From Prevotella nigrescens (GTDB lineage Bacteria; Bacteroidota; Bacteroidia; Bacteroidales; Bacteroidaceae): a DNA stretch of 64,000 nt. The notes beneath the pieces are model-generated. The model searched no databases. It saw only the letters and a program-made list of their open reading frames with translations, and was not told the origin of the DNA. Location of the stretch: the NCBI RefSeq assembly GCF_031191185.1, contig NZ_CP133465.1, forward strand, positions 1,112,001 to 1,176,000, read 5' to 3'. A program made the position numbers and the translations under genes. Below are positions 4,682-58,034 of the stretch, piece after piece (within the stretch, counting starts at the first letter, position 1; every line of letters begins with the position of its first letter).

Positions 4682-5149
4682 CTTCCTTTCCCCATATCAA
4701 ATTGTTCTTTTATTCTTATCAGATGGGAACAAGGTCTCTGCAGGCTTTGTTTTCCGATGGTATGGGCATGATTTTTTATTACAGCAAACGAGGTGCTTTT
4801 CTTATCGTGCAGCTCAATGCGTTCATGGGAAATGTGCATCGCATGCCACCCTCCGGTGTATCGTCCCATACTAACGACAGTGTTTCTTGTGTGGTGCGTA
4901 AATATCTGATATACGATAATTTATAAAATCATACAATGTTCCATAAAAAACGATAGTACTTTTTACTTTAAAAGTACTATCGTTTTTTCTGGGAAGGTAG
5001 TATCGTTCCAAAAAGAAAGTACTATCGTTCTGGAAAAAAGGTAATATCGGATTAAGAAATGTAAACTATTTTCACGGCTTTTATAACCAGCGATTGAGTA
5101 CGAAGGTGTAATGAGATTAGCTGAAAAAGTCGTTTTGCAAATGTGAGAA
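4682..5149. other. Convergent intergenic region
   Basis: The gap lies between the DUF721 gene (+) and the cyclo-ligase gene (-). Short open frames here show no recognisable protein. The main content is the repeat array at 4946-5073; the rest shows nothing I can name. Confidence 0.6.
4946..5073. repeat. Palindromic array 1, about 22-bp period, core AGTACTATCG
   Basis: An inverted unit (CGATAGTACTTT, 4951-4962) is followed by forward units AAAGTACTATCG at 4971, AAGGTAGTATCG at 4994, AAAGTACTATCG at 5016 and AAGGTAATATCG at 5038. Spacings are 23, 22 and 22 bp. The first two units form a strong A/T-flanked hairpin that could terminate transcription in both directions. The array ends in a 17-nt segment (5057-5073) that is identical to the end of array 5 at 58018-58034. 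Confidence 0.9.
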
Positions 5150-5181
5150 AGCCCTTATATGCCTGGTTGCATATAAGGGCT
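5150..5181 (-). terminator. Terminator of the cyclo-ligase operon
   Basis: AGCCCTTATATGC at 5150-5162 pairs with GCATATAAGGGCT at 5169-5181 with a short loop. A stem of 13 bp lies downstream of the minus-strand cyclo-ligase gene. Confidence 0.8.
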
Positions 5182-5240
5182 ATTTGGTAAATCCGTCGGA
5201 CGTTTGAGACGGAAAGTTCTGTTATGCCGGCTGAATGTTC

Positions 5241-5771
5241 CTATAGGACGGCATCGACCTTCTCGTCGTATTCATCTGCAGGTATGCTGTCGAGCTTCTG
5301 AAAATCGAAACAGATGCCTAACTTATAGGCTTGCCTTGCCTGTTTCAGGAAGCGGTCGTAATATCCTTTCCCGCGTCCGAGTCGGTTTCCGCTTGTGTCG
5401 AAGCTCATTCCCGGTACTGCGATGAAATCTATTTTGTCATAGTCGACAAAGGGCTCTCCGACCGGTTCCAGGATATTGAATGAGCTGATTTTCATGTCTT
5501 CCGGACCAGTATAGCGGCGTATTTCCATTTCGGTTTCACTGGTCACTACCGGCAAGAGCACCTCTTTCCCCATTTGCACCATCTCGTCTACAAAGTCGTG
5601 CGTGAACACTTCGTCAGGCAATGAATGGTAAAGCATGACGGTTTTTGCTGCAATGAGCTTAGGGTGATGGCGCAAGCGGTTGATAATTGGTTCCGAAAGT
5701 TCTTTTAATTGTCCTTGAGTGTATTGAAGTTTACGGTTGCGTATTTCCTTTCTCAGTTCTTTTTTGTTCAT
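5241..5771 (-). CDS. 5-formyltetrahydrofolate cyclo-ligase
   Basis: A 176-residue cytoplasmic enzyme that converts 5-formyl-THF to 5,10-methenyl-THF using ATP. The N-terminus MNKKELRKEIRNRK and the C-terminal signature GRLGRGKGYYDRFL-like segment (NRLGRGKGYYDRFL) are typical. I start it at the ATG at 5771; an upstream in-frame start at 5852 would add a non-conserved extension. It is the last gene of a minus-strand group after the S41 protease, 87 bp downstream, and has a terminator hairpin at 5150-5181. Confidence 0.92.
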   Translation of the reverse strand: MNKKELRKEIRNRKLQYTQGQLKELSEPIINRLRHHPKLIAAKTVMLYHSLPDEVFTHDFVDEMVQMGKEVLLPVVTSETEMEIRRYTGPEDMKISSFNILEPVGEPFVDYDKIDFIAVPGMSFDTSGNRLGRGKGYYDRFLKQARQAYKLGICFDFQKLDSIPADEYDEKVDAVL

Positions 5772-5858
5772 AGTCGTGGAATGATGTGCTAATGTTCTTT
5801 TTGTGGGAATAGGGGCCGTTTGCCTGCGGAAGTCCAGCCCCTGTTCTTCCATGTTATG

Positions 5859-7520
5859 TTAATTCGTTCTGTTCTTCTTTTGTTGGCGATATTTCTTTGC
5901 GGGTGCTTTTGGGAAAGCCTTTCCGCTGTCGAGTACCTTGACAGCCATCTTTATCATGTCGTCGTCGTTGTTCAGATATTCATTCCATGCCTGCTCGTCG
6001 AGCATGTTATAGATAATTCGGCTGTGAATGTATTTTTCCAACAATGAATACGACTTGCGAATGAGGTTGTTTCTTCGTTGCAACCCATTCTTTTCTGCGA
6101 AGTTCACGAATCCATTTACAAGTTTTTTACTTCTTAAATATGCTGCGAGCGTCTTCATCTCAGTATATTTATTTAAAGTCTGACGGTTCTCGTCGGTATA
6201 TTTGAACGCATATTGCAAGAGAAGTCCACGCATTACAGCTTCCTTGTAATACGAGGTTACGTCGGTAGTGTCTTCCGGTATGAATATGTCCGGTGTAATC
6301 CCTCCGCCCCCATAAACTATGCGGCCGTTGCCGGTGTGATAAGCGGGACCAGTATGCTTGATGCTGTCCTGATAGAAAAATTCTCCATGTTGATAGCGTG
6401 TCAGCATGTCTTGTTCGTATGCGGCAATGCCTCCCGGTTTGAAAGGTTTCTGTATACATCTGCCCGAGGGAGTATAATAACGTGCGATTGTCAGACGAAT
6501 CATGCTGCCGTCGGGGAACTGTATTTGCTGTTGAACCAGACCTTTCCCAAATGAGCGGCGTCCGATGATGGTGCCACGGTCGTTGTCCTGAATGGCTCCA
6601 GCAAAGATTTCAGAAGCAGATGCCGAACCTTCGTTAATGAGCACTACCAATGGAATTTGTTGATAGCTGCCCTTTCCGCGGCTGCGGTATTCACGCCGCG
6701 GGCTTTTTCTTCCCTGCGTATAGACGACGAGCTGGTTCTTTTTCAGGAATTCTTCAGCCATTTGTACGGCACTTTCAAGGTATCCGCCAGAATTATCGCG
6801 TAAGTCGATGACCAGTTTGTCGGCTCCTTGCAAGTTCAGCTGTTGCAACGATGAAAGCATTTCTGCGTAGGTCCGTTCGCCAAAATTCTTTATGCGGATA
6901 TAACCAATGGAATCGTTAAGCATGTAAGTGGCAGAAATGCTCTTCATCGGAATGTCGTTTCGAGTGAGAACGAAATACTTTATGTTCTTCTCGCCAAAGC
7001 GTTTTATGCCAATCTTCACTTTAGAATCCTTTGGACCTTTAAGTCTGTATTGCGCTTCCTCGTTGGTAACGCTGTCTCCAACGAAAGGTTTGTCGTCTAT
7101 GCTGACAATTTTATCACCTGCAAGAATTCCGGCTTTTTCGGCGGGTCCGTTCTTTATAACGTTCTGAATATGCAGGGTGTCTTGTTGAATGGTAAACTCT
7201 ATACCGACACCGGAGAACGAGCCTTTTAGGTCTTCGGTAGCCATCTGTACATCTTTCGCACTAATATAGACCGAATGAGGGTCGAGTTCTGCAAGAATCT
7301 GAGGTAATGCCTTGTCGACCAATTCGTCAATATTGACCGAATCAACATACTGGTCGTCGATTATGTGAAGCAAGTTGCTCAATCTGCTACTTCCGCTATT
7401 GATGATGTTCAACCGGTTTCCAGAAAAGTGATTGGCATAGAATGTTCCGACGAGGACACCTATCACGACACATAATGCCAGCCATAAAGGCATGAAACGA
7501 TTATTTTTGTTCTGACTCAT
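5859..7520 (-). CDS. S41-family C-terminal processing protease
   Basis: A 553-residue protease with an N-terminal membrane segment (LWLALCVVIGVLVGTFYA), so it is anchored with the catalytic part in the periplasm. A PDZ domain (GVGIEFT, GPAEKAGILAGDKI) precedes the S41 domain. The catalytic serine sits in NEGSASASEIFAGA and the lysine in SFGKGLVQQ. Members trim or degrade envelope proteins by recognising C-termini. The start overlaps the end of the dCMP deaminase gene by 20 bp. The C-terminal 100 residues are basic and have no family motif that I recognise. Confidence 0.93.
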   Translation of the reverse strand: MSQNKNNRFMPLWLALCVVIGVLVGTFYANHFSGNRLNIINSGSSRLSNLLHIIDDQYVDSVNIDELVDKALPQILAELDPHSVYISAKDVQMATEDLKGSFSGVGIEFTIQQDTLHIQNVIKNGPAEKAGILAGDKIVSIDDKPFVGDSVTNEEAQYRLKGPKDSKVKIGIKRFGEKNIKYFVLTRNDIPMKSISATYMLNDSIGYIRIKNFGERTYAEMLSSLQQLNLQGADKLVIDLRDNSGGYLESAVQMAEEFLKKNQLVVYTQGRKSPRREYRSRGKGSYQQIPLVVLINEGSASASEIFAGAIQDNDRGTIIGRRSFGKGLVQQQIQFPDGSMIRLTIARYYTPSGRCIQKPFKPGGIAAYEQDMLTRYQHGEFFYQDSIKHTGPAYHTGNGRIVYGGGGITPDIFIPEDTTDVTSYYKEAVMRGLLLQYAFKYTDENRQTLNKYTEMKTLAAYLRSKKLVNGFVNFAEKNGLQRRNNLIRKSYSLLEKYIHSRIIYNMLDEQAWNEYLNNDDDMIKMAVKVLDSGKAFPKAPAKKYRQQKKNRTN

Positions 7521-7956
7521 TATTTCCCAGATTTAAATATTCAACCTCTATATTGGCGCGCCTAAGCAAGTCGATACCTTCAGTAAGTCTGTATTTCTCT
7601 CCATAAACCACACGTTTTATGCCTGCCTGAATGATGAGTTTGGCACATTCTATACAGGGCGAAGCCGTTACATACAATGTCGAGCCATCGCTGTTGTTAC
7701 CACTCCGTGCCAATTTGGTTATTGCATTGGCTTCGGCGTGCAACACGTATGGTTTGGTAATGCCATTCTCATCTTCGCAAATATTCTCGAAACCGCTTGG
7801 CGTCCCGTTATATCCATCGCTGATGATCATTTTCTCTTTTACCACCAATGCTCCCACCCGTCGCCGTTTACAATAGGAATTTTCCGCCCAGACGCGTGCC
7901 ATGCGCAGGTAACGATAGTCAAGAAGCTCTTGCTTTTCAGTCTTCATGTTGTCCAA
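7501..7956 (-). CDS. dCMP deaminase-family protein
   Basis: A 151-residue zinc deaminase. The zinc and catalytic motifs are HAEANAI (His, Glu) and PCIECAK (two Cys), as in deoxycytidylate deaminases and the ComEB group. It likely converts dCMP to dUMP for thymidylate synthesis. An alternative ATG three codons downstream (7947) is possible. The end of the gene overlaps the S41 protease start by 20 bp, and the M3 peptidase gene ends 22 bp upstream, so transcription is probably shared. Confidence 0.9.
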   Translation of the reverse strand: MDNMKTEKQELLDYRYLRMARVWAENSYCKRRRVGALVVKEKMIISDGYNGTPSGFENICEDENGITKPYVLHAEANAITKLARSGNNSDGSTLYVTASPCIECAKLIIQAGIKRVVYGEKYRLTEGIDLLRRANIEVEYLNLGNNESEQK

Positions 7957-7977
7957 ATAGAATATGTATTGCTTGTT

Positions 7978-10068
7978 TTAGTTTTCTTTTGTTATGCCAT
8001 TGCGTTCTAAAAGTGCGTCGATGGTAGGTTCTTGTCCTCGGAAACGTTTATAGAGTGTCATTGGATGTTCGGTACTTCCCTTGGAAAGAATATTATCCCG
8101 GAAGCTTTGGGCAGTAGCCTGATTAAATATTCCATTCTTCTTGAATAGGCTGAATGCATCAGCATCGAGCACTTCTGCCCATTTATAACTATAATATCCT
8201 GCCGCATATCCCCCCGACATAATGTGAGAGAACTGAGTTGTCATACATGTTCCATCTGTTTGTTCGCCAATAATGGCTTTTTCCCATGCCTTTTTTTCAA
8301 ACGGAATGATATCTGCTTCGAACTTATCTTGCTGTGTATAGTATGCCATGTCCAATAATCCGAAACTAACTTGGCGCAGACAACCCATTGCAACATTGAA
8401 ATTCTGACTGGCTATAATCTTCTCAATAAGTTCGTCAGGCATAGGCTCCCCTGTTTCATAATGGAAGGCAAAAGTACGTAAGAAGTCTTTTTCCACAGCA
8501 AAGTTTTCCATGAATTGAGATGGAAGTTCTACGAAATCCCACCATACATTTGTGCCAGACTGACTTTCGAAACGGCTGTTTGCAAAGATACCATGCAGTG
8601 AATGACCAAATTCGTGCAAGAAAGTTGTAACTTCGCCTAACCGTAATAGTGCAGGCTTCTCGTCTGTCGGTTTAGAGAAGTTCATTACTAACGATACGTG
8701 TGGGCGTATGTTCTCGCCTTCTTTCGTAATACGTTGTCCTTGAAATTCTGTCATCCACGCACCAGCACGTTTACCTTTTCGTGGAAAGAAATCAACATAA
8801 AGCACCGCAAGATAAGAACCATCTTTATCGTAGACCTCGTATGGTTTCACATCTGGGTGATAAACAGGAATGTCTTTATTCTCTTTGAAAGTAATGCCAT
8901 AAAGTCGGGTTGCTAATCCGAACACGCCTTTTATAACGTTGTTTAATTCAAAATAAGGTCTCAACGCCTCTGGGTCAAGATTATATTTTGCCAACTTTAA
9001 TTGATGTGCATAGTATGCTGTATCCCACGGCATCAGCTTAAAACTATCTCCTTCTTGTTCTTTGGCAATAGAGCAAAGTTCGTTATATTCTTTAATTGCA
9101 GCTGGCTTGTAGGCTTCGATAAGGTCGTCAAGCAATTTATAGACATTCTTGACGTTACTTGCCATACGATATTTCATAACGAAATCGGCATAAGTGTCGT
9201 ATCCCAATAATTGTGCCATTTCTCTACGGAGGTTCACTAAGCGTTTGCAAACTTCGATATTATTCTCCGAATTTGCTTTTATGCATAGCGTGTTGTGCGC
9301 CATGTATAGCTCTTTCCTTAGGTCTCGTTGAGTGCTATACATTAGGAAAGGACCGTAACTCGGCGCATCTAACGTGAATATCCAGCCTTCAAGACCTTGT
9401 TCTTTGGCAGTTGCGGCAGCGGCTTCACGGATAGAGTCTGGTAATCCTTCAAGTCTTTCCTCATTGGTAATATGAAGTTTGTATGCTTTGTTCTCTTTTA
9501 ATACATTTTGCGAGAACTTCAATGCGAGCATACTTGCCTCTTCTGTAAGCTTGCGTAGTTTCTCTTTATCAGTTTCATTCAGCAGTGCGCCACTACGTAC
9601 AAAGCCATCGTAACTCTCCTCCAATAGTTTGTTTTCCTCAGGAGTAAGTTCCCTATGGTTATTGTAAACGGCTTTTATGCGCTCAAAAAGTTTGGGATTG
9701 AGACTGATGTCGTTTGCATGCTTAGTGAGAATGGGATTCATTTTTTGCGCCAAAGCGTCCATTTCGTCGTTTGTTTCTGCACTAAGCATGTTGAAGAAAG
9801 CACTTTCTACACGCGAAAGTAAATCGTAATAATGCTTACGTCCTTTTACTTCGTCTTCGCGAATAAGCGTATTTTCAAAAGTAGGTTCTTCCGGGTCGTT
9901 TATTGTTTTCTCTATTTGTTCGTCCTCACGGCGTATTCCTTCTAACATTGCCTCTTCATAATCGGCAAGTGTTATTTTGTCGAATGGAATAGTTTCGTGT
10001 GGTGTATTATACAATCCAAAGAAAGGGTTCAAGTGTTGTTGTCCCTTTCCATTAATATTCTTTGTCAT
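7978..10068 (-). CDS. dcp: M3-family metallopeptidase (peptidyl-dipeptidase Dcp type)
   Basis: A 696-residue zinc peptidase. The HExxH motif is in FLHEFGHSLHG near residue 480, with the third ligand Glu in the following WDFVELPSQFMENF. The order and length fit Dcp/oligopeptidase A proteins, which cleave short peptides. The N-terminus NPFFGLYNTPHETIPFDKI is typical for Dcp. No signal peptide is seen, so it is likely cytoplasmic. It is the first gene of the minus-strand group, with a -7 box at 10094-10101. Confidence 0.93.
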   Translation of the reverse strand: MTKNINGKGQQHLNPFFGLYNTPHETIPFDKITLADYEEAMLEGIRREDEQIEKTINDPEEPTFENTLIREDEVKGRKHYYDLLSRVESAFFNMLSAETNDEMDALAQKMNPILTKHANDISLNPKLFERIKAVYNNHRELTPEENKLLEESYDGFVRSGALLNETDKEKLRKLTEEASMLALKFSQNVLKENKAYKLHITNEERLEGLPDSIREAAAATAKEQGLEGWIFTLDAPSYGPFLMYSTQRDLRKELYMAHNTLCIKANSENNIEVCKRLVNLRREMAQLLGYDTYADFVMKYRMASNVKNVYKLLDDLIEAYKPAAIKEYNELCSIAKEQEGDSFKLMPWDTAYYAHQLKLAKYNLDPEALRPYFELNNVIKGVFGLATRLYGITFKENKDIPVYHPDVKPYEVYDKDGSYLAVLYVDFFPRKGKRAGAWMTEFQGQRITKEGENIRPHVSLVMNFSKPTDEKPALLRLGEVTTFLHEFGHSLHGIFANSRFESQSGTNVWWDFVELPSQFMENFAVEKDFLRTFAFHYETGEPMPDELIEKIIASQNFNVAMGCLRQVSFGLLDMAYYTQQDKFEADIIPFEKKAWEKAIIGEQTDGTCMTTQFSHIMSGGYAAGYYSYKWAEVLDADAFSLFKKNGIFNQATAQSFRDNILSKGSTEHPMTLYKRFRGQEPTIDALLERNGITKEN

Positions 10069-10093
10069 GTTTTGCTTTCTCTCTAATATGCTA

Positions 10094-10101
10094 CAAAGAT
10101 A
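10094..10101 (-). promoter_or_regulatory. -7 box for the M3 peptidase gene
   Basis: CAAAGATA on the plus strand is TATCTTTG on the minus strand, about 25 bp before the start codon. Confidence 0.65.
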
Positions 10102-10138
10102 CAGAAAAACTATGTATGGACGAAAGAGTGTATTAGAT

Positions 10139-10801: not shown

Positions 10802-10833
10802 TTATTTAAACGAAGCTCTTTATTGCTAAACTA

Positions 10834-13595: not shown

Positions 13596-13624
13596 CACTC
13601 GCTTTTCAGTAATGAAAAGAGAAA

Positions 13625-13722
13625 TGGGCAAGTCTCTTACGGTCAGCTCCCTTTTAATCCCCCAGGACGGGAACGTAGCAAGGGCAGAAGGTTGTAGCGA
13701 CGCGATAAGAATCGCTTGCCCA
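13625..13722 (+). ncRNA. ffs: Signal recognition particle RNA (small bacterial type)
   Basis: TGGGCAAG at 13625-13632 pairs with CTTGCCCA at 13715-13722 to close a 98-nt hairpin. Inside lie the conserved GGTCAG and the asymmetric loop segments CAGGACGGGAACGTAGCA of helix 8, where Ffh binds. The RNA directs membrane-protein ribosomes to FtsY and SecYEG. Its 3' end is only 5 nt from tRNA-Thr, so the two probably share one transcript. Ends are from pairing, not from measured termini. Confidence 0.93.
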
Positions 13723-13727
13723 CCTTC

Positions 13728-21418: not shown

Positions 21419-21583
21419 TTATTAGCTTATTACAAGTAATTTATAAGCTTTTATTTAAAAGCTCATAAGTTTTTAATTAATAGCTTATAAGCTTTCTATA
21501 AATAGCTTATAAGCTTTCTGCAAATAGCTTATAAGCTTTTCATTTATAGCTTATAAACTCTTTATTGAAAACTTATAAGTTTT
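21419..21583. repeat. Palindromic array 2, exact 22-bp period, core AGCTTATAAGCT
   Basis: The heptamer TTATAAG (or one-base variants) starts at 21419, 21441, 21463, 21485, 21507, 21529, 21551 and 21573: eight units at exactly 22 bp. The full core AGCTTATAAGCT is a perfect palindrome in three consecutive units. Linkers are A/T-rich and variable. The array ends 38 bp before the -7 box of the HU-like gene. Confidence 0.93.
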
Positions 21584-21712: not shown

Positions 21713-22132
21713 ATGGCAGGAAAATCATTGAGCTATGTTCTGGTGGAGCGTAAACTAAACGTAGGTCCGAAAGGCAAACAGATAATGCAGATTGCACAGC
21801 CGACGAAACGTCGCCGGGTAGATTTTGAAAGCTTTTGTGCGCAAGTGGCTCGTGCAACCACGTTCACCCGGCAAGAAGTTGCGGCTGTTTTGAGCTATTC
21901 TGCAGAGGTAGCACGCGATCTTGTGGCAAGTGGCGACATTGTTGAATATGGCGACCTGGGTACGCTTAAACCATCGTTTAAAAGCAAGGCAGTGCCAAAG
22001 GGCGAAAAATTCAAGCCCAACGTGCATATAGAAAAGGCTATGGTTAAGCTTTCGCCATCGCCTAAATATTTCACGCTGAACGATGTGTCGTACGAACAAG
22101 TGAGCAAGTCGAAGAAGAAAAGTAAGCTGTAG
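21713..22132 (+). CDS. HU-family DNA-binding protein, HU-HIG type
   Basis: A 139-residue basic protein. It matches the Bacteroidetes HU-HIG family: an N-terminal extension (SLSYVLVERKLNVGPKGK), the HU-like dimer helices (DFESFCAQVARATTFTRQEVAAVL) and a strand segment GDIVEYGDLGTLKPSF, with a lysine-rich tail. HU proteins bend and compact DNA. Members are numerous in Bacteroidetes genomes, and the specific role of this copy is unknown. It sits directly downstream of a 22-bp repeat array, which may be coincidence. A strong terminator follows at 22182. Confidence 0.88.
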   Translation: MAGKSLSYVLVERKLNVGPKGKQIMQIAQPTKRRRVDFESFCAQVARATTFTRQEVAAVLSYSAEVARDLVASGDIVEYGDLGTLKPSFKSKAVPKGEKFKPNVHIEKAMVKLSPSPKYFTLNDVSYEQVSKSKKKSKL

Positions 22133-31959: not shown

Positions 31960-31965
31960 TATAAG

Positions 31966-32362
31966 TGGACCTGCGGAGAGTCGAACTCCGGTCCGCACAA
32001 GGAAACCATACGCTTTCTACATGCTTATTTCAGCCTTTTGTTTTCGAGCATTGGCAAGACCTGAACCACCAACCAATGCCTTATCCTCTAAATTTCATTT
32101 GGGCAGCGAGGCATACCCAAACTATTTCCGATTTAACCTGCACCGCTTTACCCTCCGATTCGGAACAACATCTTTGGAGCAGTGTCTCGTTCAACTATCT
32201 AATAGTCGAATAAAGCCAGTAATCTACTGTACTTCGATTAGGCAGCGAGAGCGTAATTGTTTTCGCCAATTAACTGTTTGATAACCGATATTTAGGAGCC
32301 AGCTACCAATGCTCCGCATGCTTACATACCATTTCGTCTTGCCGTCAAATCCATACAAGCCC
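31966..32362 (-). ncRNA. ssrA: tmRNA (ssrA)
   Basis: Read on the minus strand, the 5' end GGGCTTG (32362) pairs with CAGGTCC near the 3' end, and a T arm GGAG-TTCGACT-CTCC precedes it, forming the tRNA-like domain. The tag frame reads GENNYALAA then stop (32267-32238). The ending YALAA is the usual degradation signal. Length is about 397 nt. tmRNA with SmpB frees stalled ribosomes and tags the nascent chains. A -7 box (32388-32395) and terminator (31921-31959) frame it. CCA is not fully encoded. Confidence 0.95.
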
Positions 32363-35106: not shown

Positions 35107-35402
35107 AATTAAATAGTTTATCGTACATCTGTACGTTGGTTAATATTTCAATAGATTTTGATACAAACATTGATAAATACTGCAAACGGCATCGAGAAGT
35201 TCAGCAAACTCATTTGCAATAACCGAATACCGCCACATTTTGGAAATCAATTGGTAATTACAGATTTATGCGTCTTTCGCAAATATAGACATTAAAATTC
35301 ATATTTCCAAATTTATCTGACACTTTTCCAAGTAGCCAGTGCTTTTCTTCAGCCTGCTGTTTTGCCAGCTCTGTCCCATTTCAACGCTTGTCGCAGAAAT
35401 TA

Positions 35403-35482
35403 TTTACACGTAAATAAATATTTCTTTACGTGTATGGAAATTATTACTTACGTGTAAATAAATATTTTTCTACACGTAAAGA
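35403..35482. repeat. Palindromic array 3, 22-bp register, core TACACGTAAA
   Basis: Units: TACACGTAAA at 35405, inverse TTTACGTGTA at 35425, inverse-type CTTACGTGTA at 35447 and TACACGTAAA at 35471. The two forward units are 66 bp apart (3 x 22) and the two inverse units 22 bp apart. So all four keep one 22-bp register when orientation is taken into account. Confidence 0.85.
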
Positions 35483-35654
35483 AATCGTCAATGTTCGGTT
35501 TGTAAAGAAACATACCAATTTTTCTAATTCACTGAAGCTTCACTTTCATAGTATTAAAGAATACAAAGAAGCCGCTTCCGACCATACTTATATTTGCAAT
35601 TAAGCTTCTTTTCTGTTTTTCTTCCATTCATTTGGTATTTAAATGGTTTTTGTT

Positions 35655-44690: not shown

Positions 44691-44810
44691 TGCTTTTATT
44701 GCTTTTTATAACCCTCGTGGGGTATAATTGCACTTTATTCGTAGAGTATGGTAAGCTTTGTTGCTTTGTGTTTGGAGGCTGTCGAAATACTTGCCAAATA
44801 GGGACTCTTG

Positions 44811-44922
44811 CCGCAACGGGGTTACGACGATCGTCGTAACCCCGTTGCGGCATTGGTCGTAACTCCGTTGCGATGAATGCCGTAACTCCGTTACGACAAA
44901 CGGCGTTGTTCCGTTACGTGTT
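44811..44922. repeat. Palindromic array 4, exact 23-bp period, core CGTAACTCCGTTGCG
   Basis: A perfect 40-bp palindrome without a loop (44811-44830 against 44831-44850) opens the array. Forward units CGTAACcCCGTTGCGG, CGTAACTCCGTTGCG, CGTAACTCCGTTACG and CGTTGTTCCGTTACG start at 44835, 44858, 44881 and 44904: exactly 23 bp apart. The units are GC-rich in an AT-rich gap, so AT bias does not explain them. The array lies between two convergent genes. Confidence 0.93.
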
Positions 44923-44931: not shown

Positions 44932-46416
44932 TTATTTTACAACTTTACGCGTCGTTCCGTCTCTCATACGAACGATATTTACTCCACGCTGCAATTCCTT
45001 CTGTTTCTTGCCATTGACAGAGTAAATAGTTCTTACGGTAGCGTTGTTCGATGACATGCCTGCCGAAATTCCCGATGGTGTTTTTCTTGTGAAATATCCC
45101 GTATCGGGGTTTGCCATCGACCCATCGGTTTTGTTCTTGTCGTATGCGACTGCACCTTTGAGTTTCTCGCAGAAGCTGAACATATCCTTTGCAGTGCTGC
45201 AATTCCATGCATCATTGCAGTAAATGGTGGTCAGAGACTCGCAATGACTGAACATTTCGCTGAACGACACTGTACCTTTCGTGTTGAAATTTGTCAGGTC
45301 GAGCGAAGTCAGTTTCTTGCAGTTCCGAAACATACTCCTCATATGGATTACTTCCTTTGTATTGAAACTCGAAATGTTGAGGGTGGTCAGACTGATGCAT
45401 CCGTCGAACATATTATCCATAAAACCAACTTTAGCCGTGTTGAAGTTTGATAAGTCAAGCGATTTCAGACTGCTGCAACCACGAAACATATTTGCCATAC
45501 TGGTTACGTTAGTTGTGTTAAAGCTTGATAGGTTGAGCGAAGTCAGGTTTTGACATTCAGTGAACATCTCTCCCATGTTTATTGTATTTGCCGTATTGAA
45601 GCTCGAAAGGTCAAGTGCGGTTAGGTTTGAGCAAGCCCGGAACATATAGCCCATACGGGTAACTTTTGCTGTATTGAAGTTTGAAAGATTGAGCGATGTC
45701 AGTTTGGTGCAACTCATGAACATCTCTTCCATATCGGTTACGTTCTCGGTGTTGAAGTTCGAGACATTAATCGAGGTCATATTGGCGCAGACAGAGAACA
45801 TACTGCTCATATTTCTTACGTTCTTCGTGTTAAAACTTGAAAGATTGAGCGAAGACAGTGCTTTGCAGTTGAAGAACATGTGCCTCATGTTGGTTACGTT
45901 CTTTGTGTTGAAACTCGATAGGTCGAGCGCGGTCAGAGCAATGCAGTGCATGAACATCATGCTCATGTTGGTAACGTTTGCCGTGTTGAAGTTCGATAGG
46001 TCGAGCGAGGTTAAGGAAGTGCAAGCAAAGAACATTTCCGTCATATCGGTTACTTCAGACGTGTTGAGATTTTCCCAACCCGTGATATTCTTCAAGGCTC
46101 TGCAATCGCCAAACCAACAACGGGTGGTTGTCGGGCGGTAGTTCTTGAACGATGTATCGAACACGACCGTAGTAGTCCATGTATTATTAGCTTCGGGAAC
46201 TCCTGCCCAAGCTGGACATCTGCCTTGGTATCGGGTTTCCTTGATACCATACACCGTACCCGTTCGGCTCGATTTCTGTGCGTCGTAATAGAACGTGAGC
46301 GTTGCGCCGTCGTCGCTTACTACGACATATGCTTCGTTCTTTTGTGCCTGCGTCGGTAGTGCTGCCATTAGCATTATTGCTATGGCAAACAATGAGAAAA
46401 GTAGTTTTGGTTTCAT
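44932..46416 (-). CDS. BspA-type DUF285 repeat surface protein
   Basis: A 494-residue exported protein with signal peptide (LLFSLFAIAIMLMAALPTQA). Residues about 105-420 are about 13 tandem units of 23 residues of the DUF285 type (NFNTANVTNMSMMFMHC, LTSLDLSSFNT). These form a right-handed repeat rod in Gram-positive and Bacteroidetes surface proteins. The last 35 residues (VRTIYSVNGKKQKEL) look like a short sorting-like tail. The likely role is adhesion. The promoter box is at 46540-46547. The gene ends within 16 bp of array 4. Confidence 0.82.
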   Translation of the reverse strand: MKPKLLFSLFAIAIMLMAALPTQAQKNEAYVVVSDDGATLTFYYDAQKSSRTGTVYGIKETRYQGRCPAWAGVPEANNTWTTTVVFDTSFKNYRPTTTRCWFGDCRALKNITGWENLNTSEVTDMTEMFFACTSLTSLDLSNFNTANVTNMSMMFMHCIALTALDLSSFNTKNVTNMRHMFFNCKALSSLNLSSFNTKNVRNMSSMFSVCANMTSINVSNFNTENVTDMEEMFMSCTKLTSLNLSNFNTAKVTRMGYMFRACSNLTALDLSSFNTANTINMGEMFTECQNLTSLNLSSFNTTNVTSMANMFRGCSSLKSLDLSNFNTAKVGFMDNMFDGCISLTTLNISSFNTKEVIHMRSMFRNCKKLTSLDLTNFNTKGTVSFSEMFSHCESLTTIYCNDAWNCSTAKDMFSFCEKLKGAVAYDKNKTDGSMANPDTGYFTRKTPSGISAGMSSNNATVRTIYSVNGKKQKELQRGVNIVRMRDGTTRKVVK

Positions 46417-50416: not shown

Positions 50417-50453
50417 GACTTTTGCAGCCATCTGAAATTATCTTAAAAAGAAG

Positions 50454-50490: not shown

Positions 50491-50626
50491 TGTATGTGTT
50501 GCACCCTTATCTCGAATATGGGCGGCGTGGTGTGCTTTCCGAAATCGACAGAAAAGAAGATAATAAAGATGTAAATATTTTCTACAAACTTAGTTATTGC
50601 TTAACAGTCTAATCGTCAGAGTATTA

Positions 50627-50712
50627 TAAAACCTATCGTTTTGCGTTCCCAAAGCGGCTGTTTTACACGTTAAAAGCATAGGTTTTACATCACGAAACAG
50701 CCGCTTTCGCAA
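50627..50712. other. Two interleaved inverted repeats (pseudoknot-capable element)
   Basis: Arm A1 TAAAACCTAT (50627-50636) pairs with A2 ATAGGTTTTA (50678-50687). Arm B1 AAAGCGGCTGTTT (50651-50663) pairs with B2 AAACAGCCGCTTT (50695-50707), extended by TTGCG/CGCAA (50641-50645, 50708-50712). The order A1-B1-A2-B2 permits a pseudoknot or two competing hairpins. No gene overlaps it; no promoter consensus is obvious next to it. Confidence 0.75.
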
Positions 50713-50911
50713 TGTCAGAGCACAATTGGTACTTTCCAACAGAATTATCTTTACAAAGTTAAATAGGAAAATCCCCACTATTTCATTGGTGAGTAAAAGT
50801 TTATTAGTGGGTAAAAGAATATCTATAGGATTGCTTGCTTAGCCTGCTTTCTTATATCGAACTAACGTAAACTCCACGTTCCTGGCGTTGTCATACACCC
50901 CCTGAAAGCAG

Positions 50912-50942: not shown

Positions 50943-50952
50943 TGGTTGTTTC

Positions 50953-52215: not shown

Positions 52216-52482
52216 AACTTTTTTCTTTGAAAGTTGCAATAAATATGAAAAAAATATGCTGAAGTGCTGAAATTGGTAGCAATCTGTTAGATGCCGACTT
52301 TGTCCATTGTCCCGGCTCCCATTGCGAAAAAAGCAAACTCTATTTCTCTCCCTGCCCTATCTGCATCTGTACAAAATGACGAACAGCAAGACAATGTCTG
52401 CTGACAATATCTTGCTGAACAGTACTTTCTGTGGATTACTAATATAATGTATAGAGCAACCTCTATAGTTGCCCGATAGAGG
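52216..52482. other. Intergenic stretch
   Basis: Apart from the hairpin at 52384-52417 I see nothing recognisable. Confidence 0.5.
52384..52417 (-). terminator. Hairpin after the TonB receptor gene
   Basis: CAGCAAGA at 52384-52391 pairs with TCTTGCTG at 52410-52417, about 65 bp past the stop codon. Confidence 0.55.
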
Positions 52483-54555
52483 CTACATCTGTATGCTGAT
52501 GCCGGTAGTGAGCCAAGTGCCGGGTTGAGGCACGTTTCCGTAGTCTACGTACGCTCTGTTAAGCAGATTGTTGGCAGCAACAAAGGCTGTCCACTTGCCT
52601 GCGTTCCACGAAAGGCGTGTGTCGAGTATGCCATACGTTGCATATTTATGGTGCTGATTGGCGGTGTCGATGTAGTTTCCCATGCGGTGGAGCAAGCGGT
52701 AGTTCAGACCGAAGTCGAGGTTTCGCCACAGGTTCAGCTGCAAATCAGCCACCATTTTATTCTTCACATACTCTAAAACGTACTTGCTCGTAATGCCCTT
52801 GTGCTCCTTTTCGTTCTGGTTAAGATAGCAATAGGCTATGCCAAAGTGCTTCAGGAAACGCTGTGAAGGCATCAGGGCACGGAAGTCGAAACGAAGCGAA
52901 GCCTCTATGCCTACGACATTGATGCGTCCGAAGTTCACGCTTTTCCACAGCGTGGCACCGTTCGCGTCGAGTGTTCCGTCAGAAATCCAGTCGATAAGGT
53001 TCTTCTGACGATTATAGAAAATACTTGTCTTACCGCTGATTCCGTGTGCATCGTACTTCATGCCGGCTTCCAGTGCCGAGAGTTCTTCGGGTTTCAGGTG
53101 CTTGTCTGCCTTGTGTCCACCCACAGAATAGAAGAGTTCGGTAAACGAAGGCATACGCAGCGAAGTGTTGTACGACGCATACACCTTCCATGCGTTGCCT
53201 ATCCGGTAGCTTGCATCTATGCCCGGATAAACGCGCATATTCATGTCGGCTTGGCTGTTCTTCACCGCAACGATGCCTGCCGATAACGTAAAGCGCGAAA
53301 GAATTATGTTGTGTTCCAGCACGAATTGCAGGTTGGTGCGGTTAATTCCGTTCGTATAGTCGCGGTCGGTTCCATGAATGTGGTGCTGCCGTCCGAGCTT
53401 TTCGCCAAGGTTTGTGCTCACAAGCTCCTCTTGTCTCAGTTCAGCAGCAAATGCAGTCCGCCCCAAACTCCAGTCGAAATAAGCATTGAGGTTCACACCA
53501 TATACGTCGGTTCTGTGGTAGTTGTACGCATACTTCTGCGGTGCGCCACGGAAAAGCTCGAATCTGTCCATGCTGCGATTCCAATAGATAGACGGACGGA
53601 TGTGGAACCTTCCTTGCTTGTTTTCAGCCTGCAGGGCAGTGAAAGTCTTGAACGTATGTTCAAACTGGTCATCGTATTTTGCCGCATAGAACGTGTTTGC
53701 ACCAAAGTCTTTAACGCTCATTCCAGCATGCCAGTTCACCGCAATTAGGTCGTCATTGTAGTTGCCTTGGTAGAAAACCTTGCCCGTTTTGTAATCGGCA
53801 TTCAGTCTTCCGACCTTGTTTCTCAGATAGCCGTCGCTATGCGTAAACGAACCCGAGAGCTGGTTATTCCAATGTCCCTGCGCAATGTTTGCACGTGCGC
53901 CCGCCGAAAGATAGCCATAAGAGCCACCTTCTATGCGTGCAGAGAGAGAAGAAGATTGGGGAGTCTTGGTTACAATGTTTATCGCACCTAATAAAGAAGA
54001 TGTGCCATAAACGCGTCCTGCCGGACCTTCGAGAACTTCAATGCGTTCGATTTCGCTTATATCGACTGGGAAATCGAAAGTGTTATGGGCTGTTTGGGCG
54101 TCGCAGATGTTGATTCCATTCAGCAAAACAGTAATCTGCTCGGAGTTTCCGCCCCGTATGCTCACATCGGTAAGTGCTCCTAAAGCTCCTTTCTGGCGCA
54201 CGTCTACCCCTACGGCATACTTCAACAGGTCGTTTACACTTTGTACTGGCGCGGCTTGAATGTCTTCACGACTCAGTACAGTTACCATTCTCGCTTGCTG
54301 ACTGACAGTCAGCGGCGCTCGCGTACCCGTTACATTCACTTCTTCGAGCATCACTTGCTTGTTGGTTACTGTGGAATCGCTGCTCGTCTGCAAGGCTTCA
54401 TTACTTGTGTTGTGTGCCGTTGCGTGTTGAAGAGTAGCAACACTCAGTACACCAATTATCACTTCCTTGCCGAGAACAGCAAAGAGCGAATAGCCGTGAT
54501 TGGAGAAGTGGGTAAACTTCAGTACACTACGCTTGTTTAAAATTGGTTTGTACAT
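52483..54555 (-). CDS. TonB-dependent outer-membrane receptor, BtuB-like
   Basis: A 690-residue receptor. The N-terminus contains HGYSLFAVLGKEVIIGVLSV, a stretch typical of Bacteroidales vitamin-type TonB receptors. The plug domain has VNVTGTRAPLTVSQQARMV and DVSIRGGNSEQITVLLNGI, and the barrel ends in a C-terminal strand (GTWLTTGISIQM). BtuB proteins import cobalamin using TonB. The ligand cannot be proved from sequence, but the B12-dependent reductase 4.4 kb away fits. The leader holds a hairpin (54576-54621) behind a -7 box at 54628-54635. Confidence 0.82.
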   Translation of the reverse strand: MYKPILNKRSVLKFTHFSNHGYSLFAVLGKEVIIGVLSVATLQHATAHNTSNEALQTSSDSTVTNKQVMLEEVNVTGTRAPLTVSQQARMVTVLSREDIQAAPVQSVNDLLKYAVGVDVRQKGALGALTDVSIRGGNSEQITVLLNGINICDAQTAHNTFDFPVDISEIERIEVLEGPAGRVYGTSSLLGAINIVTKTPQSSSLSARIEGGSYGYLSAGARANIAQGHWNNQLSGSFTHSDGYLRNKVGRLNADYKTGKVFYQGNYNDDLIAVNWHAGMSVKDFGANTFYAAKYDDQFEHTFKTFTALQAENKQGRFHIRPSIYWNRSMDRFELFRGAPQKYAYNYHRTDVYGVNLNAYFDWSLGRTAFAAELRQEELVSTNLGEKLGRQHHIHGTDRDYTNGINRTNLQFVLEHNIILSRFTLSAGIVAVKNSQADMNMRVYPGIDASYRIGNAWKVYASYNTSLRMPSFTELFYSVGGHKADKHLKPEELSALEAGMKYDAHGISGKTSIFYNRQKNLIDWISDGTLDANGATLWKSVNFGRINVVGIEASLRFDFRALMPSQRFLKHFGIAYCYLNQNEKEHKGITSKYVLEYVKNKMVADLQLNLWRNLDFGLNYRLLHRMGNYIDTANQHHKYATYGILDTRLSWNAGKWTAFVAANNLLNRAYVDYGNVPQPGTWLTTGISIQM

Positions 54556-54575
54556 GATGTAATAAATTTATTAAT

Positions 54576-54635
54576 GGTTCGGGCTATCTGCTCTTAGTGG
54601 GAGGCAGACCTTGCCGAAACCGAGATGCAAAAGTA
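54576..54635 (-). promoter_or_regulatory. Promoter and leader hairpin of the TonB receptor gene
   Basis: CAAAAGTA at 54628-54635 is TACTTTTG. GGTTCGGGC (54576-54584) pairs with GCCGAAACC (54613-54621) apart from one mismatch, with TCTGC/GCAGA inside. It is too short for the standard cobalamin riboswitch, and I do not see its B12 box. Confidence 0.5.
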
Positions 54636-54751
54636 CATAAATTATTACGGAAAAGTCTGCTACTTCGGCTATTTCTTTCCTTTTGTTTCGCTTCTTTCCA
54701 CTAAACAGGAAAATAAATGATAAGATAGGCTGATAGTTTTTTATTATTTAC

Positions 54752-54759
54752 TACTTTTG
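54752..54759 (+). promoter_or_regulatory. -7 box of the xpt operon
   Basis: TACTTTTG, with a 90-nt leader before the ATG at 54850. The leader does not show the purine riboswitch consensus. Confidence 0.6.
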
Positions 54760-54849
54760 CACTTTATATTTCTAACAGACGGATAGTTATATCGTTGTTA
54801 GGCAAATTTAAGTATCAAAAAAGTAGAAAGCTAAGTAAGTAACCGTACA

Positions 54850-55422
54850 ATGAAAACATTGACAGACCGCATTCTTAAGGACGGGAAATGCTATGAAGGG
54901 GGAATATTGAAGGTAGACAAGTTCATTAACCATCAGTTAGACCCTAACTTGATGAAGCAAATAGCCGTGGAGTTTATCCGTCGCTACGCTTCTACGGAGA
55001 TAAACAAGATTATAACAGTGGAGGCAAGTGGCATTGCGCCTGCCATTATGATGGGTTTCCTGCTCGATTTGCCTGTTGTTTTTGCCAAGAAAAAGAAGCC
55101 CTCCACGATGGCAGATATGCTTTCGTCTACCATATTCTCGTTTACGAAGCAGCGCGAATACCATGTTTGCATTTCAAAAGAATACCTTACACCAGCCGAC
55201 AAGGTGCTTTTCGTAGACGATTTCTTAGCTTACGGAAATGCTGCGAAAGGCATTATAGACCTGTGCAAGCAAGCTGGAGCAGAGCTTGTAGGTATGGGAT
55301 TTATCATAGAAAAAGCGTTCCAACACGGTCGCGAGATTATTGAGGCAGCGGGAATACGCTGTGAAAGCTTGGCAATCATCGAGTCATTAGACAACTGCGA
55401 AATAAAGATTAGACAACAATAA
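54850..55422 (+). CDS. xpt: Xanthine phosphoribosyltransferase
   Basis: A 190-residue enzyme that converts xanthine and PRPP into XMP. The PRPP loop is [13 protein letters not shown]. The N-terminal [21 protein letters not shown] and the central AKKKKPSTM fit the Bacillus-type Xpt family. Length is normal. The permease gene starts 5 bp after it, so the pair forms a xanthine salvage operon. The divergent neighbour is the TonB receptor. Confidence 0.93.
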
Positions 55423-55427
55423 AACCC

Positions 55428-56771
55428 ATGGAACAAGCAAAAGAACTTATTTACGGGCTGAACGACCGCCCACCTTTGCGCGAAACAATCTTTGCTGCCG
55501 TGCAGCATCTGTTAGCAATTTTCGTAGCTATCATTACTCCACCACTCATTATCAGCTCTGAGTTACAATTTGATTTGGAAACAACCGGATTCCTTGTTTC
55601 TATGTCTTTGTTTGTTTCGGGCATTGCAACCTTCATTCAGTGCAGACGTTTCGGCAGTCTTGGCGCAGGTTTGCTGTGCATTCAAGGTACATCGTTCTCG
55701 TTCATCAGTCCCATTATCGGAGCCGGCATGCTCGGAATGGTAAACGGGAAGATGAATGTCGAGATGGGACTAAGCTATATATTCGGAGCTTGCATGGTGG
55801 CTTCGGTTGTAGAGATGCTGGTCAGCCGCGTGCTGCCCTATATGCGCAAGATAATAACTCCGTTGGTTTCGGGCATAGTTGTTACGCTTATTGGCTTATG
55901 CTTAATAAAAGCGGGCATAAACTCGTGTGGTGGCGGCAATGCGGCTATGGACGCAGGCACTTTCGGCTCTATGCAAAACCTCGGACTGGCGCTGCTTGTG
56001 CTTGTAAGCATTGTAATATTCAACCGTTCGAGCAATCCGTTCCTGCGAATGGCATCTATCGTTCTGGGCTTGATACTGGGATCTACGGTGGCTTACTTCC
56101 TGGGACTAATCGACTTTTCACGGTTAGGCGACACGGGCGCACTGAACATTCCGGTACCTTTCAAGTATGGTTTGCATTTCGACACCGGCTCCATCATCGG
56201 ATTGGGACTGATATATTTGGTAACAGCAGTTGAGGCCTACGGAGACATTACCGCCAACTCGCTCATTTCGGGCGAACCAGTCGAGGGACCAGTATTCATG
56301 AAACGCGCGCAGGGAGGTATCTTGGCAGACGGTTTCAACTCGTTTCTTGCAGCGGTATTCAATAGTTTCCCGAACTCAATCTTCGCGCAGAACAACGGAA
56401 TGATACAGCTTACGGGCGTCGCCAGCCGCTATGTGGGCTACTTTGTGGCAGGTGCCCTGCTCGTCTTGGGCTTGTTCCCAGTGGTGGGACAGTTCTTTTC
56501 GCTTATCCCCGACTGTGTGCTCGGTGGTGCAACACTGCTGATGTTCGGAACAGTAGCCGCTGCGGGCATTCGCATCATAGCTGCCACAGCCATCAACCGC
56601 AAGGCAGTTCTGGTCATGGCAATCAGCTTTGCGATGGGACTGAGCGTAGAACTCGTGCCGAACATATTGGACAAGATGCCTGAAGTGATACGCAACATAT
56701 TCTCGAGCGGCATAACGATGGGCGGACTGACGGCTATTCTGGCAAACGCACTCATTCGCATCAAGGAATAA
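55428..56771 (+). CDS. NCS2-family nucleobase permease (xanthine/uracil type)
   Basis: A 447-residue inner-membrane transporter with about 12-14 hydrophobic segments. Family signatures include QHLLAIFVAIITPPLI near the start, VTAVEAYGDITANS and NGMIQLTGVASRYVG. It belongs to the NCS2 group that co-transports xanthine, uric acid or uracil with protons or sodium. The position directly behind xpt favours xanthine. Length and topology look complete. Confidence 0.92.
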   Translation: MEQAKELIYGLNDRPPLRETIFAAVQHLLAIFVAIITPPLIISSELQFDLETTGFLVSMSLFVSGIATFIQCRRFGSLGAGLLCIQGTSFSFISPIIGAGMLGMVNGKMNVEMGLSYIFGACMVASVVEMLVSRVLPYMRKIITPLVSGIVVTLIGLCLIKAGINSCGGGNAAMDAGTFGSMQNLGLALLVLVSIVIFNRSSNPFLRMASIVLGLILGSTVAYFLGLIDFSRLGDTGALNIPVPFKYGLHFDTGSIIGLGLIYLVTAVEAYGDITANSLISGEPVEGPVFMKRAQGGILADGFNSFLAAVFNSFPNSIFAQNNGMIQLTGVASRYVGYFVAGALLVLGLFPVVGQFFSLIPDCVLGGATLLMFGTVAAAGIRIIAATAINRKAVLVMAISFAMGLSVELVPNILDKMPEVIRNIFSSGITMGGLTAILANALIRIKE

Positions 56772-56820
56772 AAACAGGTGAAGTATTGTTGCCCCACGCT
56801 TTTTTTCAGTTTTTTATTCC

Positions 56821-56828
56821 TATCTTTG
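56821..56828 (+). promoter_or_regulatory. -7 box of the membrane-anchored hypothetical gene
   Basis: TATCTTTG with a T-rich upstream element, about 36 bp before the ATG. Confidence 0.65.
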
Positions 56829-56864
56829 CAGACGAACATTCAATTGATTTAAAACATAAAAACT

Positions 56865-57341
56865 ATGGCGAACGAAGCGAAGAAACGCAAGTTTATAAGT
56901 TCTTTCACTTTTAAACTGCTCTTGGTACTATTGGTTCTGTTAGGTTTCGGACTGTTCTACAACCTTGTAATAGCCGAAGACGATATAGTTTCGGAACAGG
57001 AACAGCAGGAAGAACAACAACGGAATGCCGTGCTCGACACGGTCGATGTGGTGGGCGACTACCTATGGCAGAACAGAAAGCTACATAAAAACGACATGAC
57101 AGCCGGCGAAGAAACGGCAGCCAACAAGGACGATGCACATAAAGACAACGGAGAAAACAAATCGGACACGCATCGCAAAGAAGCAAACGACAACAGGGCT
57201 GACGCAGAACCAACAGTTCCGCTGCCAACTCCAGCAGCAGATCCTACGGTAAATGCACCCGCAAAAACGACGTCGAAGCCCGCCACGCCGCCAGCCATCG
57301 AGAAAGTTTCGTCGCCAAAAGTAGAGAAGATTGAACAATAG
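56865..57341 (+). CDS. Hypothetical single-span membrane protein with Pro/Ala-rich tail
   Basis: A 158-residue protein. A basic N-terminus (NEAKKRKF) is followed by one membrane helix (LLLVLLVLLGFGLFYNLVI), so the rest is probably periplasmic. An acidic Gln/Glu stretch (DIVSEQEQQEEQQRN) comes next, then a charged low-complexity region and a Pro/Ala/Thr tail (PTPAADPTVNAPAKTTSKPA). No domain is recognised. It could be a spacer or peptidoglycan-crossing protein; this is only a guess from composition. It has its own promoter and no operon partner. Confidence 0.7.
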   Translation: MANEAKKRKFISSFTFKLLLVLLVLLGFGLFYNLVIAEDDIVSEQEQQEEQQRNAVLDTVDVVGDYLWQNRKLHKNDMTAGEETAANKDDAHKDNGENKSDTHRKEANDNRADAEPTVPLPTPAADPTVNAPAKTTSKPATPPAIEKVSSPKVEKIEQ

Positions 57342-57485
57342 CCTCCCCCGTGTCGGGGCATTCCTTGGTATCCAATGGATATGAACGATGAATAATTTCC
57401 GGCAGGAACACAGGGCTTTTGCATATCTTTACAATAGGTTAAAAAACGAACTATAATTCTTTTCATAATTACGACCGACAAGGTC

Positions 57486-57530
57486 AATGCTCCCGAACAT
57501 CGTTCCCGATGCTTTGGGAGCATTCTTTTT
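57486..57530 (+). terminator. Terminator-like hairpin
   Basis: AATGCTCCC at 57486-57494 pairs with GGGAGCATT at 57516-57524, followed by CTTTTTG. It lies about 145 bp past the hypothetical gene. Confidence 0.75.
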
Positions 57531-57840
57531 GTTTGTCCGTTCCTTGCATTCCACCCAAGAGCCGGTAGCCTTCAGTCCGTCCGCCATGCACTTCTTCCGT
57601 CATCACCATTCAGGAAGGCAGACAATGCAGCTCCATACTTTCTTCACCAATAAAATAAACCTGGCTTTTTATTACAGAAAACAAGCCGTCTATCCTATCT
57701 CGCAACTGCATTCGTTGGTAAGATTCATTTGTCGCCTACCACTATTTCCCGACACAGATTTGCTATAAAAGCGACAAACGATGCTACTATTGCTAATATT
57801 TGATATTCAGTAGTTTATGAAAGGATTATGGTTTCCTTAA

Positions 57841-58034
57841 AAAAGGTATATACTTTTTACCAAAAAAGTATATACCTTTTAGGTAAAAAGTATAATGTTT
57901 TTCGATGAAAAGTATATACTTTTTTTATTGAAAGTATATATCTTTTCTATAAAAGGTATAATAGTTTTATTTGAAAGGTATAATCTTTCTATGAAAAAGG
58001 TAGTATCAGACCCCGAAAAATGTAAACTATTTTC
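57841..58034. repeat. Palindromic array 5, exact 22-bp period, core AAAGTATATACTTT
   Basis: An inverted unit (AAAAGGTATATACTTTTT, 57841-57858) opens the array. The G of the GTA core then falls at 57868, 57890, 57912, 57934, 57956, 57978, 58000 and 58022: eight units exactly 22 bp apart. The last unit (TGTAAACTATTTTC) is inside a 17-nt segment identical to the end of array 1. The palindromic core AAAGTATATACTTT is degenerate in most copies. Confidence 0.93.

What the first reader, a model, noticed from the sequence alone, without database searches (positions are those of the whole stretch)
4946..58034. Five intergenic arrays of locus-private, self-complementary words with a 22-bp (or 23-bp) period
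Arrays at 4946-5073, 21419-21583, 35403-35482, 44811-44922 and 57841-58034 have the same architecture but unrelated core words (AGTACTATCG, AGCTTATAAGCT, TACACGTAAA, CGTAACTCCGTTGCG, AAAGTATATACTTT). Each core is nearly a palindrome, repeats at a fixed step of 22 bp (23 at one), and varies mainly in the linkers. All are in convergent or divergent gaps, none inside an operon. 22 bp is about two DNA helix turns, so sites face the same side. A single sequence-specific protein cannot explain five words; a structure-based ligand, a spreading protein, or RNA folding could. This may be a repeat class not yet named.
Basis: seen in the sequence. Interest (0 to 1): 0.85.

Follow-up and report, generated by a model that had tools for sequence, protein, structure and literature searches.

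The report
Fixed-step palindromic repeats of Prevotella
The spaces between genes in Prevotella bacteria hold many short repeat arrays that keep the same 22-letter step and mirror symmetry although their lettering differs between arrays and species; one lettering already has a name, while the shared design and its purpose remain unexplained.

Summary
The arrays are real: four of five lie far beyond chance; array 1 is weaker (1 of 500 shuffles reaches it). The host is Prevotella nigrescens. In 464 kb of it, tandem regions pile up at 22 bp (20 regions; 23 bp 5, 21 bp 4, 24 bp 2); three shuffles give none. The words are not locus-private: they recur at other loci, and arrays 1 and 5 are one family. 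The commonest family is very probably PINSR, a 188-bp repeat named in 2015; the passages seen mention no 22-bp substructure. The window holds a copy at 50552-50762. The class reaches further: at 80 named loci, nearly all Prevotellaceae, 45 tandem regions have a 22-bp step and no other step exceeds 9; ten genomes of other Bacteroidales families (377 kb) have none. About a third of arrays from other species share a frame AAA-N7..9-TTT, with A/T tracts near 11 bp apart; a subset is predicted to be curved. Between two strains, the only indel of at least 8 bp inside 70 kb of aligned blocks is one 22-bp unit. Arrays usually lie beyond 3' hairpins of genes. REP/RAYT, terminator and hairpin-per-unit readings are weakened. 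A DNA-level architectural role is my first choice, narrowly ahead of a parked mobile repeat.

The parts
4941..5056 (.). Array 1, 22-bp step, weakest of the five; begins with an inverted pair of units (4941-4992)
   Evidence: 23-nt arms, 96% complementary; 36/66; 1 of 500 shuffles; fold z -7.1
5057..5073 (+). Right-end word shared by arrays 1 and 5
   Evidence: (5 places in the genome with up to 1 mismatch)
21420..21578 (.). Array 2, 22-bp step, word AGCTTATAAGCT
   Evidence: 57/66; 0 of 500 shuffles
35400..35485 (.). Array 3, 22-bp step, word TTTACACGTAAA
   Evidence: 43/66; 0 of 500 shuffles
44809..44922 (.). Array 4, 23-bp step; begins with a perfect 44-bp palindrome (44809-44852)
   Evidence: 22-nt arms, 100% complementary; 48/66; 0 of 500 shuffles
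50552..50762 (.).
   Evidence: weak 22-bp signal by itself
57842..58010 (.). Array 5, 22-bp step, word AAAGTATATACTTT; same family as array 1
   Evidence: (49/66; 0 of 500 shuffles)
58018..58034 (+). Right-end word shared by arrays 1 and 5

Best explanation
The arrays belong to a class, widespread in Prevotellaceae, of intergenic, dispersed, noncoding repeats whose body is a short array with a 22-bp step and two-fold symmetry; PINSR is very probably the member with a name. What persists is geometry rather than wording: in the commonest type A and T tracts of 3-4 bp alternate about every 11 bp (A4-N7-T4-N7), which predicts curved, two-fold-symmetric DNA, while the 7-bp middle and the linker change. 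Shown here: the class, the step, the A/T frame in about a third of arrays from other species, one unit-sized difference between strains, and the usual position beyond the neighbouring genes' 3' hairpins. Inferred: that the element acts as DNA, as a bent docking or supercoil-absorbing site for a nucleoid protein of low sequence specificity; that it spreads by copying between sites; and that the step is kept because tracts out of phase would cancel the bend.
For: Tandem regions pile up at 22 bp in this genome and at 80 named loci with differing words. AAA-N7/N8/N9-TTT in 19, 16 and 11 of 66 arrays from other species against 0.8 expected each. Predicted curvature exceeds all 25 same-step column permutations in 12 of 24 (P. 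nigrescens), 42 of 52 (P. falsenii, mostly PINSR copies), 5 of 14 (G003/G010/G016) and 6 of 33 (named loci) arrays, about 1 in 26 expected. At three orthologous PINSR loci the A4/T4 arms differ at 3 of 96 positions, the middle at 17 of 84, the linker at 29 of 84. No preferred direction relative to codirectional genes (18 same, 14 opposite, 5 unclear). 58% of 106 testable gene 3' ends facing an array have their own strong hairpin before it, 50% of 230 ends without array. No compensatory change within units.
Against: The 23-bp arrays are not predicted to be curved (0 of 10), nor are many arrays of other species; under the block permutation the signal in the named loci is gone (1 of 33) and weak in G003/G010/G016 (1 of 14). 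The bend parameters are recalled. Arrays differ between strains about as much as other noncoding DNA (1.95% vs 2.18%). A/T runs outside arrays are also slow to change (86 of 725), and in the wider array set such runs show no excess conservation (23 of 172). Two species (G009, G012) show none in 200 kb together. Curvature alone does not require the inverted symmetry. No protein was identified.
Confidence: 0.38

Rival explanations
1. Parked, non-autonomous mobile repeats with a minisatellite body and no host function: spread by an unknown enzyme, now drifting, with units gained and lost by recombination. The fixed step reflects that enzyme or a common ancestor, not present use.
For: Dispersed copies with conserved flanks (PINSR; family D; longer elements in G016). 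Substitution near the noncoding rate. Presence/absence differences between species (a G000 array at C2a 52662 faces a 29-bp gap in P. falsenii). A 22-bp array with its own word inside a mobilizable element of strain F0103.
Against: No target duplication or clean empty site was shown. No end word common to all. Y1 transposases are absent from this genome. One step shared by many unlike words is not explained.
Confidence: 0.33
2. RNA elements: hairpins at transcript ends that act in both directions as terminators or stabilisers, made by pairing between neighbouring or next-but-one units.
For: The six window elements fold better than dinucleotide shuffles (z -4.5 to -7.2). In PINSR unit 4 complements unit 2 or 3 more than shuffled partners do: P. 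nigrescens 4.68 vs 4.03 of 7 (12 of 2000 shuffles reach it, 22 copies), P. falsenii 6.04 vs 5.51 (0 of 2000, 45 copies). Arrays of named loci fold better than column-shuffled versions (mean z -0.86; 9 of 33 below -1.645). More arrays per kb in convergent than in divergent gaps (34 vs 18; p 0.012).
Against: The control arrays of other steps also lean that way (z -0.36; 4 of 42), and P. falsenii non-PINSR arrays do not (z +0.22, n 10). Arrays lie a median 163 nt past the stop, usually beyond the gene's own hairpin. No direction preference of PINSR. No compensatory change within units.
Confidence: 0.12
3. Operator arrays: each word is the site of its own dimeric DNA-binding protein, with sites stacked two turns apart.
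For: Palindromic units, a constant step, conserved arms at three loci.
Against: About ten words by eye in one genome, each at several unrelated loci and often in convergent or codirectional gaps, does not look like local regulation. The middle of the unit is exchangeable.
Confidence: 0.08
4. By-product of DNA copying: template switching on quasi-palindromes makes inverted copies and recombination multiplies them; no function and no mobility.
For: Inverted first units with shared private variants (array 4: perfect 44-bp palindrome). A whole 7-bp core differs at an orthologous locus (C2a 35832 vs C70 21602). A one-unit difference between strains.
Against: No process known to me sets 22 bp, and ten genomes of other Bacteroidales families show none in 377 kb.
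Confidence: 0.07

Closest known systems
[quoted passage not shown] 2015, PMC4755523; abstract and passages seen)
   Same: Intergenic, noncoding, about 190-210 bp, many copies, P. nigrescens and P. falsenii among its hosts, found at rearrangement points. Family B very probably is PINSR.
   Different: The passages describe one 188-bp sequence in one species group and no 22-bp substructure. Here it is one of many word families of the same step, and arrays of that step occur in many other Prevotellaceae. The published consensus is in a figure and could not be compared.
BrickBuilt MITE of Porphyromonas gingivalis (Klein et al. 2015, PMC4596501; abstract, two sections and passages seen)
   Same: Intergenic minisatellite with a 23-nt step and leader/tail flanks, predicted long stem-loops, unit number differing between strains.
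   Different: One sequence family with small inverted-repeat ends in another family of bacteria; here many words, no common ends, mostly 22 bp. Sequences were not compared.
REP/BIME elements with RAYT transposases (PMC3733652, passages seen)
   Same: Short intergenic palindromes in clusters, both directions.
   Different: No Y1 transposase in this genome; constant 22-bp step.
Phased A-tract DNA in bacterial genomes (PMC3940949, PMC7537859; abstracts and outlines seen)
   Same: Short A or T runs spaced near 11 bp.
   Different: There a diffuse genome-wide signal; here discrete dispersed arrays with inverted symmetry. PMC7537859 questions the bending reading of the genome-wide signal.

Membership tests
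PINSR (family B only) | about 188-bp intergenic noncoding repeat in many copies | tested here: met
   23 PINSR-like regions in 624 kb of P. nigrescens and 55 in 442 kb of P. falsenii
PINSR (family B only) | match to the published consensus | not testable with these tools
   Consensus stands in a figure only
PINSR (family B only) | no terminal inverted repeats | tested here: inconclusive
   Short TGTAAA-type ends face each other in alignment A1; no formal test
PINSR | limited to the P. intermedia/nigrescens group | tested here: not met
   For the 22-bp class as a whole; for the exact PINSR sequence not tested
BrickBuilt-type MITE | common leader and tail with inverted-repeat ends | tested here: not met
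   No end word common to arrays of other species; family D has one shared end
BrickBuilt-type MITE | tandem 23-nt units, intergenic, unit number variable | tested here: inconclusive
   22 bp mostly, 23 bp in family A; one unit difference between strains
REP with RAYT | Y1 (RAYT-type) transposase in the genome | tested here: not met
   PF01797: 0 in P. nigrescens G000 and 0 in G003, both with arrays; 18 of 24 genomes searched have a match
REP with RAYT | GTAG or CGTC tag | not tested
   -
Phased A-tract (curved) DNA | A/T tracts near 11 bp apart | tested here: inconclusive
   Met for 21 of 66 arrays of other species and for PINSR; not for 23-bp arrays
Phased A-tract (curved) DNA | measured curvature | not testable with these tools
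   Prediction only, with recalled parameters
CRISPR | conserved repeats separated by unique spacers | tested here: not met
   Units printed: 22-bp step leaves linkers of about 5-9 bp, no spacers
Intrinsic terminators | first hairpin after the stop codon | tested here: not met
   Median 163 nt past the stop; 58% of 106 ends have another hairpin before the array
Rfam families | match above gathering score | tested here: not met
   4 matches in the window, none at an array

The most novel reading that the evidence does not exclude
Prevotellaceae carry a repeat class that is inherited by its step and symmetry, not by its sequence: a 2 x 11 bp inverted frame under which words change while the geometry stays. 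It would be a sequence-independent architectural code of bacterial chromosomes, read by a family-specific nucleoid protein.
Probability: 0.25. Interest if true: 0.88.

Novelty: new variant of a known kind. Interest (0 to 1): 0.62.

Why it matters
Repeats are usually found and classed by sequence, so a class that shares only its step and symmetry escapes such searches; PINSR was thought confined to one species group. If the step is selected, each genome holds many natural variants on one geometry (31 regions of 21-24 bp in 464 kb here; about 180 per genome by extrapolation), which makes the open question of what phased A/T tracts do in bacteria testable. Arrays also bound an inversion between two species and can differ between strains by a whole unit, so they may serve as strain markers.

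Tried and rejected
REP/RAYT: no Y1 transposase in this genome. A common end or partner: no universal end word; no PINSR match in the phage collection and two P. nigrescens records in the plasmid collection. Hairpin in each unit: compensatory cells are fewer than in shuffles (40 vs 52.9; the control steps show the same, 4 vs 9.9); in PINSR this fits asymmetric 7-bp cores lying in both directions. Terminators: arrays lie beyond 3' hairpins. 'Word turnover in the same gap': of 13 P. nigrescens arrays with an anchor, 6 have the same family and 5 another family at the orthologous side in P. falsenii, 2 none; but alignment ends without an own array have one in the other species almost as often (9 of 15 vs 20 of 41; reverse direction 9 of 29 vs 6 of 27), so no claim is made. 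CAAAA-N7-TTTTG outside arrays: no clear excess in other species. A universal 11-bp A/T pattern: significant but weak in diverse species (z 2.7).

Rows dropped: L108 (P. falsenii) left out of the named-locus set from then on, except, which does not use it; 11 of 78 PINSR-like regions without a clear frame; 3 of 6 orthologous pairs (26-49 of 88 matches, not alignable without gaps) in the arm count, where the frame was chosen for A/T content; arrays under about three units; 27 of 125 arrays not placed in a called gap. One search counted three arrays as inside short ORFs and, by a simple ORF rule, gave wrong neighbours for arrays 2 and 5; one search supports the opposite-strand genes. One search printed runs of N as arrays; later scripts ignore N. 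Bend parameters are recalled. Not every 22-bp region was checked for coding. Three larger differences between the strain blocks (between blocks 0/1, 1/2 and 2/3) were not examined. Literature searches listed no description of a 22-bp class in Prevotella; only open-licence papers are held.

Full report
HOST. The window is C2:1112001-1176000 of a 2.68-Mb genome in six contigs. Contig C1 has the length of NZ_CP082843.1, P. nigrescens FDAARGOS_1486 (567,798 bp). At equal coordinates the two differ, but two 3-kb pieces of that record match C1 at 100%, inverted and shifted by one common offset, so it is the same circular replicon written from another start. The host is therefore taken as P. nigrescens.

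OBSERVATION. The five arrays are present. Lag 22 (23 for array 4) is best in each; array 1 is the weakest. Across the window no other lag between 12 and 60 passes the threshold apart from the doubles.

GENOME-WIDE. In the window plus 20 spaced stretches (464 kb), regions with at least 40 of 66 matches number 20 at lag 22, 5 at 23, 4 at 21, 2 at 24, and one each at 12 and 15; beyond lag 24 the counts are mostly multiples such as 44, 46, 66 and 69. Three shuffles that keep local dinucleotides give none at lags 12-89. Printed by step, the regions fall by eye into about ten word families. Words recur. Arrays 1 and 5 share core and right end with further loci.

PINSR. An all-against-all comparison of the sample shows that the commonest dispersed repeat is about 190-210 bp and contains 4-5 units CAAAA-N7-TTTTG-N5. 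Length, host group and abundance fit PINSR, described in 2015 as 188 bp, 177-184 copies per P. intermedia genome, intergenic, without terminal inverted repeats and of unknown function (PMC4755523, passages). One paper of the held library names it. The 22-bp substructure does not appear in the passages seen, and the consensus itself could not be compared.

OTHER SPECIES. Stretches of relatives show arrays of the same step, many with other words: G010, G016, G003, and G017 = P. falsenii. A scan of named genomes gave 80 loci, titled as Prevotellaceae except two called uncultured Bacteroidales: 45 tandem regions of 22 bp and 2 of 44 bp; 21 bp is next with 9, then 16 bp with 6. 33 of the 80 loci have at least one 22- or 44-bp region. 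Ten genomes, each from another family of the order, have none of 22 bp in 377 kb, where 10.7 would be expected at the rate of the named loci (P = 2.4e-5). Further stretches gave 6 in 198 kb of G004 but none in 200 kb of G009 and G012 together (P = 0.0035). The class is widespread, not universal.

SYMMETRY AND FRAME. Units of 22-bp arrays are more palindromic than their shuffles (6.40 vs 5.02 of 8 pairs, 105 arrays, 42% at p up to 0.05); arrays of other steps between 18 and 30 are not. Within units there is no excess of compensatory change. In PINSR the 7-bp cores are asymmetric, lie in both directions, and unit 4 tends to complement unit 2 or 3; between-unit complementarity exceeds self-palindromy in 43 of 50 P. 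falsenii arrays, but not clearly in P. nigrescens (12 of 21) or the named loci (20 of 33). In arrays of other species the consensus unit holds AAA-N7, N8 or N9-TTT in 19, 16 and 11 of 66 cases (0.8 expected each; 21 arrays in all), with spacings 3-5 and 13 at chance. The A/T tracts thus sit about 11 bp apart. Predicted curvature exceeds nulls with the same step for many 22-bp arrays but for none of ten 23-bp arrays; under block permutation the signal in the named loci is gone.

EVOLUTION. Two P. nigrescens strains were compared over four aligned blocks (70 kb of F0103, 98.2-99.0% identical). The only indel of 8 bp or more inside the blocks is 22 bp, one unit of an array with the word GATATC; larger differences between the blocks were not examined. 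Substitutions: arrays and PINSR 20/1028, other noncoding 304/13944, coding 543/55176. Against P. falsenii, several orthologous PINSR copies keep their length, and at one locus a whole core differs. Arms differ less than core and linker at three loci (3/96, 17/84, 29/84), but A/T runs elsewhere are slow to change too (86/725; Fisher p 0.008 against the arms), and the wider array set shows no excess (23/172). An inversion between the species (P. falsenii C70, about 28.5-34.6 kb) is bounded by arrays, in line with the published remark on PINSRs and rearrangement.

CONTEXT. Of 98 arrays placed in called gaps (27 more not placed), 34 are convergent (24% expected by gap bases, p 0.018), 46 codirectional, 18 divergent. 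ORFs were called by a simple rule, not by a gene finder. Of 121 gene 3' ends facing an array the median distance is 163 nt; 106 have room for a hairpin, and 58% of these have one at -12 kcal/mol or better, against 50% of 230 array-less 3' ends and 28% of 276 upstream regions. PINSR has no preferred direction.

WEIGHING. The data establish a class and its geometry more firmly than its use. A DNA-level role accounts for the fixed step with free words, the A/T frame, the indifference to direction and the place beyond 3' hairpins. Near-neutral change, absence from some species and the 23-bp family speak for parked mobile repeats almost as well. I put the first slightly ahead and mark protein binding as inference.

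Noticed in passing
window 21713-22132 (+): A gene with an HU-HIG domain (a DNA-binding HU relative, PF18291) starts about 130 bp from array 2.
   Followed up: no
window 3271-4404 (+): RecF/SMC-type ATPase gene upstream of array 1 (Pfam SMC_N).
   Followed up: no
window 45674-46035: 78-bp tandem repeats inside an ORF (44932-46416, -) with DUF285 and leucine-rich-repeat matches.
   Followed up: no
L224:21409-21495 (P. nigrescens F0103 record): A 22-bp array with its own word AAAAGGTCTACCTTTT lies between a DUF3408 gene and mobilization genes of an inserted element, so mobile elements can carry the class.
   Followed up: no
L064-L067 (G016): Longer dispersed repeats of about 300-400 bp contain arrays of one word with different flanks.
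   Followed up: partly
L014, L021, L026, L028 (21-bp regions): A separate very AT-rich family with a 21-bp step recurs at four loci of the genome.
   Followed up: no
window 13619-13725 (+) and 31963-32362 (-): Bacteroidales small SRP RNA and tmRNA genes, ordinary.
   Followed up: no
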